From assembly GCA_944326795.1 (NCBI GenBank), contig CALVFJ010000008.1:1-64000 (forward strand): a stretch of 64,000 nt of DNA, read 5' to 3'. Positions within the stretch are counted from its first letter, which is position 1; each line of letters starts with the position of its first letter. Position numbers and translations under genes: made by a program. This DNA comes from an uncultured Erysipelotrichaceae bacterium (GTDB taxonomy: Bacteria > Bacillota_I > Bacilli_A > Erysipelotrichales > Erysipelotrichaceae). This document shows, piece by piece, positions 42,090-50,552 of the stretch. The notes beneath the pieces are model-generated. The model worked only from the letters and a program-made list of their open reading frames with translations. It ran no database searches and was not told where the DNA came from.

Positions 42090-43868
<1,779 letters not shown>

Positions 43869-43882
<14 letters not shown>

Positions 43883-44063
43883 TATCAAAAATTTCTTGAT
43901 CTATGTCATGGCTTTTAGTTTAGCGATGTATGCTTTACAAAGCGTGAATTATGAAAAGTTCATCAAGAAGGGCCGTGTCGTAGAAGCTCAATTGCTTTAT
44001 ATCTTGATTGCGATGGCCTTAGGCTATTTGATTGCCCAGTTTATCCTAGGAATAATAAGATAG
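43869..44063 (+). CDS. ywzB: DUF1146 (YwzB-type) small membrane protein
   Basis: A 64-aa protein with two membrane helices. The middle pattern ALQSVNYEKFIKKG and the end AQLLYILIAMALGYLIAQF match the TIGR02327/DUF1146 family, which in Firmicutes commonly follows atpC. The function is unknown. It ends the operon, and its stop codon is at the foot of the terminator. Confidence 0.85.
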
Positions 44064-44092
44064 ATGCTCGTGCAGTACGGGCATCTTTTTTT
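44062..44092 (+). terminator. Terminator of the atp operon
   Basis: AGATGCTCG pairs with CGGGCATCT (one G-T pair) around a 7-base loop, followed by a T run. Confidence 0.9.
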
Positions 44093-44152
44093 GTGGCTTG
44101 CCTTTTTGAAAAATGGGTATATGATAATATGGTATTTTATGAGGTGAGATAG

Positions 44153-44818
44153 ATGAATGATAGCAAAGTTCAAATGTCAGAATCTTTTGATCTGGCAATC
44201 ATTTTAGCTGTAGCTGGAGGATTTTTAGATGCATATACTTATATTTGCCGTGACCATGTGTTTGCAAATGCGCAAACAGGCAATATCGTGCAGGTAGGGA
44301 TCACGCTGGCTAATGGCGATCTTATTAATACCCTGCGTTATTTTATTCCGATCATAGCTTTTTTTATTGGCACCTTGCTGGTCATGTATATTCGTGATCA
44401 CAATCGTACAGCTTGGCATTGGCGCCAATTGATCGTGGCTGCTGAATGCATGATCTTTTTGATCGTTGCATTTTTGCCATTGGAACATGATGCCAATATC
44501 TTAGCAAATGTCTTGGTATCCTTTAGCTGTGCGATGCAGGCAGAGACCTTTAGCAAGGTTTTGGGCAAGCCGTTTTCTTCCATCATGTGTACCGGTAATC
44601 TAAAAAGTGGTACCGAGCATTTATATCATGCTTTGAAAGAACATGATAAAAGGCGGCTAGCTAAGGTAAAGGATTATTTTTTGATCATTGCGTTTTTTAT
44701 CTTAGGGGCAATGTTAGGAGCCTTTGCGACTTCTTTCATGAAGGAAAAAGGAATCTTCGTTCCATTGATCATCATGATCGGAGCCATTATCATGATGTTT
44801 CAGCAAGAAGCAAGATAA
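44153..44818 (+). CDS. YoaK-like DUF1275 membrane protein
   Basis: A 221-aa protein with about six membrane helices. GGFLDAYTYI near residue 23 and the following FANAQTGNIVQVG are the signature of DUF1275/YoaK. The substrate and role of the family are not established. GAGGTGAG precedes the ATG. It forms a single-gene unit between the atp terminator and tagO. Confidence 0.85.
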   Translation: MNDSKVQMSESFDLAIILAVAGGFLDAYTYICRDHVFANAQTGNIVQVGITLANGDLINTLRYFIPIIAFFIGTLLVMYIRDHNRTAWHWRQLIVAAECMIFLIVAFLPLEHDANILANVLVSFSCAMQAETFSKVLGKPFSSIMCTGNLKSGTEHLYHALKEHDKRRLAKVKDYFLIIAFFILGAMLGAFATSFMKEKGIFVPLIIMIGAIIMMFQQEAR

Positions 44819-44883
44819 AAGCATATGTTAAGTAAGTAAGTAATATGTTATAATATTTAAGGTTTAGAAAGGTGGTTCAAGAA

Positions 44884-45948
44884 ATGAATTTAGTTGAAGG
44901 CGCATTTCCGTTTTTTGTCCTGCCTTTTATTTTAAGCTTGGTCTTGGTCCCGATATGTAAGAAGATCGGTTTTAGCTTGGGGGTCTATGCTCAAGAAAAT
45001 AATCGTACCGTTCATCATGGCAAGATCGTTAGGATGGGCGGGGTCGCTGTTTTTGTGGCTTTTATGATCGCGATGGCGGTCTTTGTCAAAGCCGATACGA
45101 CCTTGAATGCGATCTTGATCGGCGGCGCGGTGGTCTTTGCTGGGGGCATCATTGATGATATCTATAATTTAAAACCGTTATATAAATTGTTGTTTGAAAT
45201 TGCAGGAGCCTTGATTGCTTTGATCGGCGGTCAGCTTTATATTCAGACGTTTTATCTGCCTTTTGGTTTGGAATTCAACAATTTGATCTTTAACTTTTTG
45301 GTTTCCTTTGTTTGGATCGTTGGTATTACCAATGCGATCAATCTGATCGATGGTTTGGATGGCTTATCGAGCGGTATTAGTTTTATCGTTTGCTGTGTCA
45401 TCGGCTTGTTGGGCTTTTTCTTAGGCCGAAGAGATATTTGTATCTTAGCTTTGATCTTAGCTGGATCGATCTTGGGCTTTTTACCGTATAATTTTCATCC
45501 GGCTTCGATCTTTTTGGGGGATTGCGGGGCTTTGTTCATTGGCTACATGTTGGCTTGTGTCTCGCTGCTTGGCTTTAAGACCGCGGCAGTAGTAACTTTG
45601 GCCTTGCCGATCTTGATGATGTTCATACCGATCAGCGATACGCTTTTAGCAATCATTAGAAGAAAGCTGAAAGGTCAAAAGATCTCGGAGGCTGATAGAG
45701 GGCATCTACATCATACCTTGATGTTCAAGGTAGGGTTAGGGCATCGCAATACGGTCATTGCCTTGTATATCGTTACCGCCTTATTTGGCTTAAGCGCATT
45801 GGTGATCTTCTTTAACGAGGATCTAGGCTTGATCTTGGTGGTGATCTTGCTGATAGCATTTGAGATCTTTATTGAAGCTACTGGCATGGTCAATGAAAAA
45901 TTCCATCCGGTCATCAGTACTTTCAAGAAAATATTTAAACGCAAATAG
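44884..45948 (+). CDS. tagO: Undecaprenyl-phosphate N-acetylglucosaminyl-1-phosphate transferase
   Basis: A 354-aa polytopic enzyme of the MraY/WecA family with the metal-binding DDIYNL, the NAINLIDGLDGL signature, the FLGDCGALFIG stretch and RGHLHHTL. It starts teichoic acid or other wall-glycan synthesis by putting GlcNAc-1-P on undecaprenyl phosphate. It may therefore supply the lipid anchor for the polymer made by the left half of the window. The frame is open from 44872, but GAAAGGTGG supports the ATG at 44884. TATAAT lies upstream near 44850. Confidence 0.92.
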   Translation: MNLVEGAFPFFVLPFILSLVLVPICKKIGFSLGVYAQENNRTVHHGKIVRMGGVAVFVAFMIAMAVFVKADTTLNAILIGGAVVFAGGIIDDIYNLKPLYKLLFEIAGALIALIGGQLYIQTFYLPFGLEFNNLIFNFLVSFVWIVGITNAINLIDGLDGLSSGISFIVCCVIGLLGFFLGRRDICILALILAGSILGFLPYNFHPASIFLGDCGALFIGYMLACVSLLGFKTAAVVTLALPILMMFIPISDTLLAIIRRKLKGQKISEADRGHLHHTLMFKVGLGHRNTVIALYIVTALFGLSALVIFFNEDLGLILVVILLIAFEIFIEATGMVNEKFHPVISTFKKIFKRK

Positions 45949-45959
45949 GATAAATGATC

Positions 45960-45990
45960 AAACCTCCTTATATATAACATAAGGAGGTTT
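45960..45990 (+). promoter_or_regulatory. Terminator-like hairpin that hides the next ribosome site
   Basis: AAACCTCCTTAT pairs perfectly (12 bp) with ATAAGGAGGTTT around ATATAAC and is followed by TTTTT then ATG. The right arm contains the complete AAGGAGG ribosome site of the gene at 45993, and the left arm is its exact complement. It probably ends most tagO transcripts and blocks translation of read-through mRNA. Confidence 0.85.
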
Positions 45991-45992
45991 TT

Positions 45993-46559
45993 ATGAATTA
46001 TAATAGCGTCGAACAGGTCCTAGGCGGACAGGTACCAGAAGGAATATTTGTTAAAGATCATGCTTGGCATGCTTATCTTAACTCCAAAAGGATCGTATAT
46101 GATGGGATAGATCAAAAGAATGTAGATTATAATATGATATCGGAAGCTAATTGGCTATTGCGCAAGGATGGCCTATCATGCGAAAAATTTGGGATCAATG
46201 TGGAAGCAGGTAATATTTGTTTTATTGATTTTGGTCAGGCATATCTAAATGAGATCGGGTATCAGCATTTTGGTTTGATCATGTCATTTTGCCAAAAGAA
46301 AGCATTGGTCATACCCATGACCAGCAATGCTATCCAGTATGAACATGCATATGATCCTTTAGATAATCCTCAAGGTAAGAAAAATTTATTTCGTTTAGGT
46401 ACCATCAACGGAATGAACAAGCCTTCAGTTTTATTTTTGAATGATGCTAAATATATCAATACCGCAAGGATCATTGATGTAAAAGCTTATATCGATCCGC
46501 GCAGCATATTGTTTAAAAAAATTCGTAAGCAATTATTAGCGATTATGTTTAATTTATAG
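45993..46559 (+). CDS. PemK/MazF-like protein, no adjacent antitoxin
   Basis: A 188-aa protein. Its middle (ICFIDFGQAYLNEIGYQHF, then LVIPMTSN and LFLNDAKYINTARIIDV) follows the PemK/MazF endoribonuclease layout, with an added N-terminal segment of about 70 residues. The usual GD(I/V)-x3-D/L and TS motifs are only partly kept. No antitoxin-sized gene lies next to it. The ribosome site AAGGAGG is excellent but buried in a hairpin. Activity as a toxin is not proven by sequence. Confidence 0.55.
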   Translation: MNYNSVEQVLGGQVPEGIFVKDHAWHAYLNSKRIVYDGIDQKNVDYNMISEANWLLRKDGLSCEKFGINVEAGNICFIDFGQAYLNEIGYQHFGLIMSFCQKKALVIPMTSNAIQYEHAYDPLDNPQGKKNLFRLGTINGMNKPSVLFLNDAKYINTARIIDVKAYIDPRSILFKKIRKQLLAIMFNL

Positions 46560-46588
46560 TTGCGAAAAAGTAAAAGTAATGATATTAT
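46560..46588 (+). promoter_or_regulatory. Promoter of rpmE
   Basis: TTGCGA, a 17-base spacer and TATTAT. It is followed by a leader of about 60 bases. Confidence 0.65.
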
Positions 46589-46592
46589 ATTT

Positions 46593-46651
46593 AGGCATTT
46601 AAGCCTTACTTTAAGCACGCTTGTTTGTTTAAGGCGGAAGGGAGAACAAAA
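46593..46651 (+). promoter_or_regulatory. Candidate rpmE leader with alternative hairpins
   Basis: GCCTTA at 46603-46608 can pair with TAAGGC at 46630-46635, next to the ribosome site GGAAGGGAG. The same GCCT can instead pair with AGGC at 46593-46596. Two exclusive hairpins before a ribosomal-protein gene suggest autogenous control; this is inference. Confidence 0.4.
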
Positions 46652-46855
46652 ATGAAAAAAGGAATTCATCCAGAATACAACAAATGTAAAGTTATTTGCA
46701 CTAGTTGCGGAGCTGAATTTGAATCAGGTTCAACAAAGAAAGAAATCAAGGTAGATACTTGTTCAAATTGCCATCCATTCTTTACTGGAAGACAACGTTT
46801 TGCGGCTGCTCAAGGTCGTGTTGAAAAGTTCAATAAGAAATATGGACTTAAATAA
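46652..46855 (+). CDS. rpmE: Ribosomal protein L31
   Basis: A 67-aa zinc-binding (type A) L31: MKKGIHPEY start, CTSC near residue 17 and [10 protein letters not shown] near 40, giving the four-Cys zinc site. The frame is open 27 bases upstream, but family comparison and GGAAGGGAG fix the start at 46652. A terminator follows immediately. Confidence 0.97.
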
Positions 46856-46880
46856 TAAGGATGCAAATCCTTATTTTTTT
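46854..46880 (+). terminator. Terminator after rpmE
   Basis: AATAAGGAT pairs with ATCCTTATT around a GCAA loop, followed by a T run. Confidence 0.88.
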
Positions 46881-46899
46881 TAGCGTGAGGAATTGATTT

Positions 46900-47508
46900 A
46901 TGAGCATGATGTATAATCAATATCGCCCAGGTTGGGTGGAGGTCATTGCTGGGTGTATGTTTGCCGGCAAGACCGAAGAATTGATCCGCAGGATCAAGGT
47001 CTTAGAGTTTGCTAAGAAAAGAATCGTTGTTTTCAAACCTAAGATCGATAATCGTTACAGCGATACGATGGTCGTATCGCATGCAGGAAGCAGAGTCGAT
47101 TCGATCGTTGTCGATAGAGCCAGCGAGATCTTAGAGCAGGTAGATACTGATATCGATGTCGTCGCTATTGACGAAGTACAATTTTTTGATGAAGATATCG
47201 TAGAAGTTTGTGATATACTAGCTAGTGAAGGAAAAAGAGTTATCGTTGCCGGTTTAGATACGGATTTTCGCGGGGAGCCTTTTGGTATGATGGCTACCTT
47301 GATTACCAAAGCAGAGTTTGTAACTAAGCTAACGGCAGTATGCAATCGCTGCGGAGCGCCGGCAACCCGTACCCAGCGCTTGGTAAATGGCAAACCAGCC
47401 AAATGGCATGATCCTCTGGTCTTGGTCGGAGCTAGTGAAGCTTATGAAGCTAGATGCCGCCATTGCCATGAAATAATCGATAAACCTAATAAGTTAACAA
47501 GGAGGTAA
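46900..47508 (+). CDS. tdk: Thymidine kinase
   Basis: A 202-aa type II thymidine kinase with the P-loop [11 protein letters not shown] at 18-28, DEVQFFD (Walker B) near 90, the lid sequence with CNRCGAPA and CRHCHE zinc ligands, and a family-typical length. It phosphorylates thymidine in the salvage pathway. It is the first gene of a tdk-prfA-prmC unit, an order common in Firmicutes. Confidence 0.96.
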
Positions 47509-47513
47509 GCAAA

Positions 47514-48584
47514 ATGGATGCATTGATCGAAAAGCTTCAGGAATATGAAGATCGTTACAATGAAATAAATGATCTGATGGTTAGTGATGAGATCATCAAT
47601 AAGCCAAAAGAAATGGCCAAATTGGCCAAAGAACAAGCATCGATCAAACAGATCGTCGATGCTTATGAACATTTAAAAAGCATCAACAATAATTTGGAAC
47701 AAGCTCATGAAATGTTAAAAGAACATGATGAGGAACTAAAAGAAATGGCGAAGATGGAGCTGGAAGAACTAGAACCAAAAAAAGCTGAACTATTGGAACA
47801 TATCCAATTATTACTAATTCCAAAAGATCCTAATGATGATCATAATGTCATCATGGAGATCCGTGGAGGAGCCGGTGGTGATGAAGGTAATATCTTTGCT
47901 GGTGATCTATATCGAATGTATTGTAAATATGCGGAATCTAAAGGCTGGAAGGTGCAGTTGCTAGAAGCAAGCGAATCGGAAGCCGGTGGTTTTTCGCAGA
48001 TCATCTTTGCTATCAAGGGTACGGATGTCTATCGGGAATTAAAGTTTGAATCAGGAGCGCATCGTGTTCAGCGCGTTCCTAAGACCGAGACACAAGGTAG
48101 GATCCATACTTCAACGGCGACCGTATTATGCCAGCCAGAAGCTGAAGATGAAGATATCGAGATCCCAATGAGCGATCTGACCATCGAGACCCATCGTGCC
48201 AGCGGTGCCGGCGGTCAGCATATCAACAAGACCGATAGTGCTGTGCGTATCGTGCATGTACCTACCGGAATCACGGTCAACTGTCAAGAAGGACGCAGTC
48301 AGATCGAAAACCGCGAGACCGCATTGCGTTTGATCAGATCTAGGGTATATGAAGAAATGCAACGGATCAAGGAAGAACAAGAAGGTAAAGAAAGAAGAGC
48401 TAAATTAGGTACTGGTGATCGCTCGGAGAAGATCCGTACCTATAACTATCCGCAAAATAGGGTTACCGATCATCGTATCGGCTTGACCATCACCCAGCTA
48501 GATCGCATCATGGAAGGTAAGATGGATGATATCATTGCCGGTTTGTTGGCGGAAGAACAGAAACAACGCTTGAAAGAGGCTTAA
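47514..48584 (+). CDS. prfA: Peptide chain release factor 1
   Basis: A 356-aa RF1 with the GAGGQHINKTDSAVR motif whose GGQ triggers peptide release. AAGGAGG precedes the ATG. Its Gln is the methylation target of PrmC, encoded by the next gene, which starts on the base after the stop. Confidence 0.96.
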   Translation: MDALIEKLQEYEDRYNEINDLMVSDEIINKPKEMAKLAKEQASIKQIVDAYEHLKSINNNLEQAHEMLKEHDEELKEMAKMELEELEPKKAELLEHIQLLLIPKDPNDDHNVIMEIRGGAGGDEGNIFAGDLYRMYCKYAESKGWKVQLLEASESEAGGFSQIIFAIKGTDVYRELKFESGAHRVQRVPKTETQGRIHTSTATVLCQPEAEDEDIEIPMSDLTIETHRASGAGGQHINKTDSAVRIVHVPTGITVNCQEGRSQIENRETALRLIRSRVYEEMQRIKEEQEGKERRAKLGTGDRSEKIRTYNYPQNRVTDHRIGLTITQLDRIMEGKMDDIIAGLLAEEQKQRLKEA

Positions 48585-49442
48585 TTGATGACGACCTTTA
48601 ATCAAGCCGTCCATGCGGCTAAGCAAGCTTGTGAAGCTCAAGGAATTCCTGCGGAAACGGTAATGAGCTATCTTTTTGAGATTGCAAATATGGAAAAATA
48701 TAATCTATATATGCAGTTTGATGAGGAAATGCCTGAAAGTTTATATGAACAATTTAAGGCTGGGGTCCAAAGGATCATCGATCATGAACCACTAGCGCAT
48801 ATCTTAGGATATTCCTGGTTTTATGGCTATAAGTTCAAGATCAATGAAGACGTCTTGATCCCACGCTATGAGACCGAAGAATTGGTAGCACAGATCCTAG
48901 CGCGTAAAGATCGATATTTCAAGGATCAGCAGGTAACAGCCATCGATGTGGGTACCGGTAGCGGCGCTATTGCGATATCCTTGAAAAAGGAAGAAGATAC
49001 CATTAGCATGTATGCTAGCGATATCAGTGAAAAAGCGATCGCAGTAGCTAAGGAAAATGCTATCGCTAATGATGCCAAGGTTGAATTTATGGTGGGCGAT
49101 ATGTTAGAACCTTTTATTGAAAGAAATATGAAGGTCGATATCTTGGTATCAAATCCACCATATATTCCTAATGATGAGAAGCTCGAAACGGAAGTTGTCG
49201 ATCATGAACCGCATGTTGCATTGTTTGGTGGCAATGATGGCATGGATTTCTATCGTATCATCTTGAAGAATTGTCATCGATTGTTAAAACCTAGAAGTTT
49301 CATGGCTTTTGAAATTGGTTTCAACCAATTTGCCGCTTTAGAACAAGAAATAAAAAAATATTGCCCTGAGGCAACATATGAGATCGTAAAAGATATCAAC
49401 GGTAAGGACCGGATGTTGTTCGTATATTTTAACCTTGCTTAA
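48585..49442 (+). CDS. prmC: Release factor glutamine methyltransferase
   Basis: A 285-aa SAM-dependent methyltransferase with an N-terminal helical domain, IDVGTGSGAIAISL (SAM site) and the NPPYIP active-site motif. It methylates the GGQ glutamine of RF1 and RF2. The ATG at 48588 (MTTFNQ) is an equally possible start to the first in-frame one at 48585. Confidence 0.94.
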   Translation: MMTTFNQAVHAAKQACEAQGIPAETVMSYLFEIANMEKYNLYMQFDEEMPESLYEQFKAGVQRIIDHEPLAHILGYSWFYGYKFKINEDVLIPRYETEELVAQILARKDRYFKDQQVTAIDVGTGSGAIAISLKKEEDTISMYASDISEKAIAVAKENAIANDAKVEFMVGDMLEPFIERNMKVDILVSNPPYIPNDEKLETEVVDHEPHVALFGGNDGMDFYRIILKNCHRLLKPRSFMAFEIGFNQFAALEQEIKKYCPEATYEIVKDINGKDRMLFVYFNLA

Positions 49443-49457
49443 AGCAAGGTTTTTTTA
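49432..49457 (+). terminator. Terminator after prmC
   Basis: AACCTTGC pairs with GCAAGGTT around TTAAA, followed by a T run. The last codons of prmC lie in the stem. Confidence 0.88.
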
Positions 49458-50552
49458 TATCAGATAAAGAATGATCAAAAAAATGATATTAGCAGCCGTA
49501 AAGATCAACAGATATTTATTTTTTAGCTGAGGATATCTATTAGCGATCTGTTTATAGGAAATCAAGCTAGCCATCGAAGCAATAAGGGTTCCTAAGCCAC
49601 CAAGATTGGTGCCGATGATCAGATCTTTAAGATTGGTAGTATAGTTAGCTAATAGCATCGCACAAGGAACATTGCTGATGACTTGGCTTAATAAGATGCT
49701 GATCATTTTTTCATTGCCGCTAAGGATCGTTTTGATCAAATTATCAATAGCTGGAAGATGCTTGATATTGCCAACAAAGATAAAAAAGAAGATGAAGGTC
49801 AGCAACAGCGAATAATCAACCTTGCTTAGCAAGCTGCGGTTCTTGATGATGATCATCGCTAAAACGATGACAAAAAGATATAGATGTGGCAATAGCTTCG
49901 CAACACACAGCAAGCACAAAACAAATAAGCATAGATAATAAGCGATATCTCCTTTATCAAGCTTTAGTTCATCCTTCATGATCACTTTTAAAGAACTTTG
50001 AGGATAGCCAAACAAGACAGCGATCACTAGCATGATCAAAGCTGCTAAGGTAAATGGCAGCATCAAGCGTAAAAAGGCTAGGATATCCATTTGTGACAAA
50101 GAAAAAAGATATAGATTTTGGGGGTTGCCGATCGGGGTAAACATGCTGCCAAGATTAGCAGCGATCGTCATCAAGGTGATCGTATAGCAAAGCTTGCTAG
50201 TTTGATTAGCCATTTCTAAGATCATGATGGCAAATGGCACAAAGGTGATCAACGCAACATCGTTAGTGATCAGCATGCTGCTAAAAAAACAAAGCAGGAC
50301 CAAGGTAAGGATCAACGTTTTCTTGGTCGTAACCTTGCTAAGGATCAAGCTGCCGATATATTCAAAAAAGCTAAGATCTTTTAAACCTTCGATAATGACC
50401 ATCAAACAAAATAACAATATCAAGGTATTAAAATCGATATAACCAAGATATTCGTCATTAGGTATCACGATGAAGCATGAAAGAAAGGCCAATATCATCG
50501 CCGTGGTCAACACGACATCTTTTTTTAGAAATGCCCCTAATTTCTTAAACAT
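49455..50552 (-). CDS. SLC13/ArsB/CitMHS-like ion permease
   Basis: A 365-aa protein with about ten to eleven helices. The motifs TNDVALITFVP and SMFTPIGNPQNL match the ArsB/NhaD/SLC13 superfamily, where the second is a hairpin substrate motif. The substrate may be an anion such as citrate, arsenite or phosphate and is not decidable. AGGGGGC lies just before the ATG, and a consensus promoter lies upstream. Confidence 0.8.
   Translation of the reverse strand: MFKKLGAFLKKDVVLTTAMILAFLSCFIVIPNDEYLGYIDFNTLILLFCLMVIIEGLKDLSFFEYIGSLILSKVTTKKTLILTLVLLCFFSSMLITNDVALITFVPFAIMILEMANQTSKLCYTITLMTIAANLGSMFTPIGNPQNLYLFSLSQMDILAFLRLMLPFTLAALIMLVIAVLFGYPQSSLKVIMKDELKLDKGDIAYYLCLFVLCLLCVAKLLPHLYLFVIVLAMIIIKNRSLLSKVDYSLLLTFIFFFIFVGNIKHLPAIDNLIKTILSGNEKMISILLSQVISNVPCAMLLANYTTNLKDLIIGTNLGGLGTLIASMASLISYKQIANRYPQLKNKYLLIFTAANIIFLIILYLI

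What the first reader, a model, noticed from the sequence alone, without database searches (positions are those of the whole stretch)
45960..46559. Hairpin that both ends tagO and hides the ribosome site of a PemK/MazF-like gene
The 12-bp perfect stem contains AAGGAGG in its right arm and its exact complement in the left. Read-through mRNA would be translated only if the stem opens. Tight control fits a possible toxin that lacks an adjacent antitoxin, placed behind the first wall-polymer gene.
Basis: partly seen in the sequence, partly recalled or inferred. Interest (0 to 1): 0.6.

Follow-up and report, generated by a model that had tools for sequence, protein, structure and literature searches.

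The report
Competence-type promoter inside toxin-like gene's hairpin
A real, conserved RNA hairpin hides the start signal of a toxin-like gene in RNA running in from the gene before it, but the gene seems to have its own DNA-uptake-type promoter inside the hairpin, whose RNA would lack half the hairpin and could be translated.

Summary
The hairpin is real (12-bp perfect stem 45960-45990, Shine-Dalgarno AAGGAGG in the right arm, ATG 45993). It recurs with compensating changes in the genus and beats swapped arms from relatives (z -8.9), though 23 of 59 relatives fall in the worse half of that test. The gene is chromosomal and mostly confined to Erysipelotrichaceae (177 of 272 genomes). Its product has a MazF/PemK fold, but the catalytic Arg of MazF is an invariant His, and there is no antitoxin next to it. 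Only tagO read-through RNA would fold, be silent and perhaps terminate. This is the layout of phage T4 gene e and B. subtilis sigG. The same element precedes comGA, comC and, more weakly, dprA in this genome, and com genes in many relatives. It resembles the sigma-H consensus, and a sigH-like gene is found in the other five genus genomes. So this MazF-fold gene probably belongs to a competence-type regulon. Promoter use, regulator and function are untested.

The parts
44872..45948 (+). tagO/wecA-like glycosyltransferase family 4 gene (upstream gene; stop TAG 45946-45948)
   Evidence: PF00953 E 1.1e-39
45946..45955 (+). -35-like box TAGGATAAAT, overlapping the tagO stop codon
   Evidence: motif trained on homologues outside the genus scores this site 12.6; 99th percentile of 1500 random windows 9.3, maximum 15.0
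45960..45971 (+). left arm of hairpin (AAACCTCCTTAT), lying between the -35-like box and the -10
45968..45973 (+). -10-like box TTATAT, straddling end of left arm and start of loop (predicted transcription start about 45979-45982)
   Evidence: start site inferred, not mapped
45972..45978 (+). hairpin loop ATATAAC
45979..45990 (+). right arm of hairpin (ATAAGGAGGTTT), contains the Shine-Dalgarno 45981-45987
45993..46559 (+). gene X: 188-aa protein, N-terminal helices plus MazF/PemK-fold domain (residues about 65-188)
46652..46855 (+). rpmE-like gene downstream (neighbour; no antitoxin-like ORF between)
   Evidence: name from sequence, recalled

Best explanation
The hairpin is a read-through silencer wrapped around the gene's own promoter. 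In RNA that runs in from tagO both arms are present, the SD is paired and the MazF-fold gene is not translated; the five U after the stem may also stop part of that RNA. From its own promoter (-35-like box on the tagO stop codon, -10 at the end of the left arm) the mRNA should start at about 45980, carry a leader of about 13-15 nt, lack the left arm and be translatable. The promoter is of the class that also precedes comGA, comC and dprA, so the gene is probably made with the DNA-uptake genes, most likely under the sigH-like sigma factor of this family. Shown by computation: hairpin, its conservation, shared promoter element, MazF fold. Inferred: start site, sigma factor, translation blocked or allowed, biochemical activity.
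For: Hairpin: z -4.7; G003 of the same genus keeps the stem with three two-sided and two one-sided changes and one outer pair lost, G002 with one G-U. Arm swap over 59 cluster representatives: mean -10.96 against -8.27, sd 0.30, 0 of 20000 permutations as low. Promoter: EM and anchored listing; PWM without this genus gives 12.6 here, and over 9.3 (1% of random windows) for 15 of 39 comGA/dprA upstreams, over 6.8 (5%) for 23 of 39. In the window's genome a tight pattern hits 7 separate places in 9 rows (4 rows for the reversed control): gene X, comGA, one on the start of comC, the rest inside ORFs; comC itself carries AGGAAAAA...GCGTATAT (PWM 15.8, gene). Predicted SD accessibility 0.00 in read-through RNA, 0.46 in own-promoter RNA (a shorter RNA opens more anyway). 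Stems are weaker where a separate terminator lies upstream (MWU p 0.012; with a hard cut not significant, p 0.30). sigH-like gene between rlmB and nusG in the genus, best NCBIfam match TIGR02859 although under its cut-off. Published sigma-H consensus RNAGGAWWW / RNNGAATWW (PMC8510167, passage).
Against: No transcript data. 23 of 59 representatives rank in the worse half for their own arm, so the hairpin is not needed by the gene family. The -10 here (TTATAT) is not the GAAT of sigma-H; sigH-like genes match in 257 of 272 family genomes, so presence does not discriminate, and none was found at high score in the window's own 81%-complete genome. dprA in this genome scores 8.2 and comGA 8.5, below the 1% line. 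16 of 39 com upstreams score under 6.8, partly clades with other boxes. The loose pattern has no clear genome-wide excess (75 against 58).
Confidence: 0.68

Rival explanations
1. One reading: gene X is expressed from tagO read-through RNA and a signal, protein or temperature opens the stem.
For: Stem is stable and covers the SD; S. aureus sigH is held down by a 13-nt inverted repeat over its SD in its own mRNA (PMC3486894, passages).
Against: A promoter element conserved across the family and shared with com genes excludes the left arm from the mRNA; loop and arms differ between clades and no Rfam family matches at gathering score; many homologues lack the hairpin.
Confidence: 0.1
2. The hairpin is only the intrinsic terminator of tagO, and the SD overlap is economy of space.
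For: No other terminator seen between the genes; a run of at least 4 T lies in the 12 nt before the start codon in 7 of 23 hairpin loci against 1 of 36 others, p 0.004; stems are stronger without a separate terminator upstream.
Against: 16 of 23 hairpin loci have no such T run and 10 of 23 have a separate terminator-like structure upstream as well, so termination alone does not explain pairing with the SD; the U tract here is short.
Confidence: 0.17
3. The palindrome is a DNA operator (for example for autorepression by the protein) overlapping the -10.
For: The inverted repeat overlaps the predicted core promoter.
Against: Arm sequences diverge while pairing is kept; an operator would keep the sequence; many promoters of the class have no inverted repeat.
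Confidence: 0.05
4. Same promoter architecture, but read by the housekeeping sigma factor with a competence activator rather than by the sigH-like factor (a variant of the best explanation, not exclusive of it).
For: -10 TTATAT is close to the housekeeping type; B. subtilis late com genes use sigma-A plus ComK (PMC3486894, passage).
Against: AGGA box at a nearly fixed spacing fits the sigma-H consensus; sigma-H or ComX drives com genes in L. sakei, S. aureus and streptococci (PMC3364868 passages; PMC3486894 passages).
Confidence: 0.25

Closest known systems
Phage T4 lysozyme gene e leader (PMC3014915, passages read)
   Same: Long read-through RNA hides the SD in a hairpin; promoter lies in the DNA of the 5' strand, so its own RNA lacks that strand and is translated
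   Different: Here chromosomal, other promoter class, MazF-fold product; start site and translation effect not measured
B. subtilis sigG read-through hairpin (PMC5942855, passages read)
   Same: Large hairpin proposed to block translation of read-through from the upstream operon; it cannot form in the own-promoter RNA
   Different: Sporulation sigma factor gene, not a toxin-like gene; 20+ bp hairpin; sigma-F/G promoter
S. aureus sigH 13-nt inverted repeat (PMC3486894, passages read)
   Same: Perfect inverted repeat of similar length over the SD, competence biology
   Different: There the repeat is in the mature mRNA and silences the sigma factor gene itself
MazF/PemK (type II toxins)
   Same: Fold of residues about 65-188 (Z 13.6 to S. 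aureus MazF 9g48); the conserved GDI, Glu and C-terminal Arg columns align
   Different: Extra N-terminal helices, catalytic Arg replaced by invariant His92, no adjacent antitoxin, shared competence-type promoter

Membership tests
MazF/PemK toxin family | MazF/CcdB fold | tested here: met
   Foldseek 7bxy E 1.1e-5; VIA-align Z 13.6, rmsd 2.4, 108 residues
MazF/PemK toxin family | Pfam PF02452 match | tested here: inconclusive
   window protein none up to E 1; 20 of 35 homologues match up to E 1, best E 9.9e-5
MazF/PemK toxin family | catalytic Arg of the EQxGxRP motif (role recalled) | tested here: not met
   R25 invariant in 9 of 9 canonical relatives aligned, of 13 extracted; aligned column is invariant His92 in 35 of 35 homologues
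MazF/PemK toxin family | adjacent antitoxin gene | tested here: not met
   44 nt to tagO upstream, rpmE downstream, no small partner ORF
MazF/PemK toxin family | sequence-specific RNase activity and toxicity | not testable with these tools
   needs expression and assay
T4 gene e / sigG type read-through silencer | hairpin pairing the SD in read-through RNA | tested here: met
T4 gene e / sigG type read-through silencer | own promoter overlapping the 5' arm, own RNA lacks the arm | tested here: inconclusive
   boxes and spacing found and conserved; start not mapped
T4 gene e / sigG type read-through silencer | read-through RNA exists and is not translated | not testable with these tools
   needs RNA and reporter data
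sigma-H (competence) regulon | RNAGGAWWW -35 and RNNGAATWW -10 at sigma-H spacing | tested here: inconclusive
   -35 AGGATAA agrees; -10 TTATAT does not read GAAT; GAAT appears in several relatives; consensus from PMC8510167
sigma-H (competence) regulon | element shared with late competence genes | tested here: met
   15 of 39 comGA/dprA upstreams above the 1% line, 23 of 39 above the 5% line; comC in own genome
sigma-H (competence) regulon | dependence on the sigma factor | not testable with these tools
   needs mutant or in vitro transcription
described cis-regulatory RNA (Rfam) | match at gathering score | tested here: not met
   0 matches in 43000-50000; all 8 matches up to E 10 in 45850-46100 lie far below gathering

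The most novel reading that the evidence does not exclude
Gene X is a so far undescribed late competence protein of Erysipelotrichaceae: a MazF-fold domain that has lost its antitoxin and swapped its catalytic Arg for His acts on nucleic acid or on translation only in competent cells, and its expression is kept to that state by a promoter built into an SD-hiding hairpin, selected anew in many species.
Probability: 0.3. Interest if true: 0.8.

Novelty: new variant of a known kind. Interest (0 to 1): 0.6.

Why it matters
It joins three things not linked in the papers searched here: a conserved MazF-fold gene without antitoxin, a competence-type promoter class in Erysipelotrichaceae (a gut family whose DNA uptake is little covered in those searches), and the T4-gene-e type of read-through silencing on a bacterial chromosome. 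It makes the role of a 'toxin' fold in competence directly testable and gives a sequence handle on the competence regulon of the family.

Tried and rejected
sigH-like presence as a marker of the promoter: at first (TIGR02859) it seemed to track the AGGA promoter type; a deeper profile matched in 257 of 272 genomes, so this argument was dropped.

Loose genome pattern for the regulon: 75 hits against 58 for the control, not informative by itself. Of the best-scoring hits I looked at 24 (20 newly fetched, 4 loaded before) and saw none that is both intergenic and well placed before a gene with an SD; comC (L373) is the one such hit known. About 50 hits were not inspected in context.

comEC as a further com gene: PF03772 gave one weak match in the 22 genomes of the window's family searched; not followed.

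MAFFT alignment of the genus hairpin put the G003 arms out of register; the pair comparison was made in SD register instead. In the com-gene scoring the start chosen for comGA of G014 was wrong (the printed codon is not a start) and its dprA hit is doubtful.

The own-promoter RNA accessibility comparison is confounded by RNA length and is used only as illustration; its 78 loci are not clustered. Profile search of PDB sequences found nothing up to E 1. Profile-profile comparison with canonical MazF gave E 0.0015 but a probability of only 17%; the residue match rests on that alignment and on the shared motif order. Plasmid records held no match; two viral contigs hold partial relatives, not followed.

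The arm-swap ranks include the own arm (1 of 59 = 0.02). Ten of 69 clusters were left out of that test, those whose representative is on a hand-made list of loci without SD. Of 134 loci held at that point 19 were dropped as duplicates, leaving 115; five of these were not used in the motif search (four set aside by hand for unclear start or weak match, one dropped by the script's filters).

Full report
Observation. The stem AAACCTCCTTAT / ATAAGGAGGTTT (45960-45971 and 45979-45990, loop of 7) is in the sequence as described, 11 nt after the tagO stop codon, with the SD AAGGAGG in its right arm and the ATG at 45993. It folds far better than shuffles (z -4.7). The ORF encodes 188 aa; no small ORF that could be an antitoxin lies between tagO and it or between it and rpmE.

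The protein. The window protein itself matches no Pfam or NCBIfam model, but 20 of 35 homologues match PemK_toxin at up to E 1, best 9.9e-5, and an AlphaFold2 model (mean pLDDT 85) matches MazF structures (Foldseek 7bxy E 1.1e-5; VIA-align Z 13.6 over 108 residues). The first 60 or so residues form extra helices. Profile alignment with nine canonical MazF relatives places the invariant His92 of this family on the Arg of the EQxGxRP motif (that this Arg is catalytic in MazF is recalled; the profile match is weak, E 0.0015). So it is MazF-like in fold; whether it is a toxin or an RNase is open.

Distribution. Homologues occur in 42 of 98 relatives at first search and in 177 of 272 genomes of the family with a profile (108 of 152 good-quality ones), but in 1 of 40 genomes of the sister family, weakly. 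Named records among the best 80 of 154 relatives are Erysipelotrichaceae: Solobacterium, Holdemania, Bulleidia, Amedibacillus, Longicatena and MAGs. No plasmid record matches. A tagO-like gene ends 0-300 nt upstream in 29 of 115 distinct loci, so the neighbourhood is common but not fixed.

Is the hairpin kept? Yes in the genus: against the window, G003 keeps the stem with three pairs changed on both sides and two on one side, and loses the outermost pair of the window's stem; G002 has one G-U; G001 and G005 are unchanged in the stem. Across the family, 59 representatives (70% identity clusters with an SD; 10 of 69 clusters left out) were tested by pairing each SD region with the left regions of all others: own arms pair better than swapped ones (mean -10.96 against -8.27, sd 0.30, z -8.9, 0 of 20000). 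Own arms are in the best 10% in 23 of 59 and in the worse half in 23 of 59: hairpins are selected in some lineages and absent in others. The arm sequences differ between clades, so pairing rather than sequence is kept.

The promoter. Motif search on 110 upstream regions and a listing anchored on it show a bipartite element at a nearly fixed place just before the SD: AGGA(A/T)(A/T)... then, about 19-22 nt further, a -10 of the type G-N-(A/G)-(A/T)-A-T. A PWM trained without the window's genus gives 12.6 for the window (TAGGATAAAT 45946-45955, -10 TTATAT about 45968-45973); the 99th percentile of 1500 random window stretches is 9.3 (maximum 15.0), and the 99th percentile of 52 upstream regions of ORFs of the window is 10.4. 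The predicted start, about 45979-45982, lies at the first bases of the right arm.

The regulon. The same PWM, trained only on gene X, scores 15 of 39 comGA and dprA upstreams of relatives above the 1% line and 23 of 39 above the 5% line (gene sets, regions; one comGA start was mis-set, see Tried and rejected). In the window's own genome the comGA element is TAGGCTAATC...GATTATATC (8.5) and dprA scores 8.2, both between the 5% and 1% lines. A tight pattern gave 9 rows at 7 separate places in that genome against 4 rows for the reversed control: gene X, comGA, one on the start of the prepilin peptidase gene comC (PF06750/PF01478), the rest inside ORFs. comC has its own strong element, AGGAAAAA...GCGTATAT, among the hits (15.8, second of 74 scored). 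Of 24 other high-scoring hits examined, I saw no intergenic site well placed before a gene with an SD. By eye, clades in which gene X lacks the AGGA box show other shared boxes at dprA (for example CGTATATAA in G019), which I did not test statistically.

Which sigma factor? The box fits the -35 of the published sigma-H consensus RNAGGAWWW / RNNGAATWW (PMC8510167, passage); the -10 here is not GAAT. A sigH-like gene lies between rlmB and nusG in G002 and G003 and also in G012 and G017 (gene names other than the sigma factor recalled from sequence); its best NCBIfam model in G002 and G003 is SigH, well under the cut-off. It was detected in G001-G005 but not at high score in the 81%-complete window genome (best E 2.6e-10), where I found RpoD, a SigV-like and a SigI-like factor. 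Presence is near universal in the family (257 of 272) and so is no evidence by itself. sigma-H is reported to activate com genes in L. sakei (PMC3364868, listing with start of abstract and passages) and S. aureus (PMC3486894, passages).

What the hairpin does. In read-through RNA the SD is predicted fully paired (open probability 0.00), in own-promoter RNA 0.46; over 78 loci 21 switch from closed to open and 2 the other way (a shorter RNA opens more in any case). Stems are weaker where a separate terminator lies upstream (p 0.012), but the hard-cut comparison is not significant (10 of 23 against 21 of 36, p 0.30). A T run before the start codon goes with hairpins (7 of 23 against 1 of 36, p 0.004), so in a subset, the window included, the hairpin may also terminate. 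Of the genus com promoters tested, none has its own arm in the best 5% (comGA of the window genome is at 0.07), while comGA of G011, G013 and G028 have a clear one (25 promoters). Thus the hairpin is an add-on against read-through, not part of the promoter class.

Known parallels. [quoted passage not shown] B. subtilis sigG: a large hairpin proposed to block read-through RNA cannot form in the own-promoter RNA (PMC5942855, passages). The layout is therefore known; its use on a MazF-fold gene in a competence-type regulon was not found in the papers searched (open-licence PMC papers only).

Verdict. Observation confirmed; interpretation partly supported; mechanism best read as promoter-inside-hairpin silencing of read-through, with the new point that a conserved MazF-fold gene sits in a competence-type regulon. 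All steps beyond sequence, fold and motif statistics are inference.

Noticed in passing
L045 (G001) 1698-2168; L023 (G049) 1359-1911: Gene X is frameshifted or truncated near its C-terminus in these two genomes, so it may be dispensable in some strains
   Followed up: no
L022, L025, L026, L030, L031, L034, L037, L040, L102, L107, L131, L133: A clade of gene X (most members starting MEPKEW or similar) has no SD and an A/T-rich -10-like stretch a few nt before the ATG: possibly leaderless mRNA with a different promoter class
   Followed up: partly
L276 (dprA of G006): dprA carries TACGAATA (the streptococcal CIN-box as recalled) a few nt before its ATG
   Followed up: no
L256, L258, L266 (comGA of G011, G013, G028): SD-hiding hairpins around the competence-type promoter also at comGA in these genomes
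   Followed up: partly
L136 1391-2756; L137 1202-2655: Window genome encodes a SigV-like factor with RsiV-like anti-sigma, and a SigI-like factor followed by a protein in RsgI position (the last named from memory)
   Followed up: no
genomes G000-G021: ComEC (PF03772) is not detected in 21 of 22 genomes of this family although comGA-like and dprA matches are common; ComEC may be very diverged or absent
   Followed up: no
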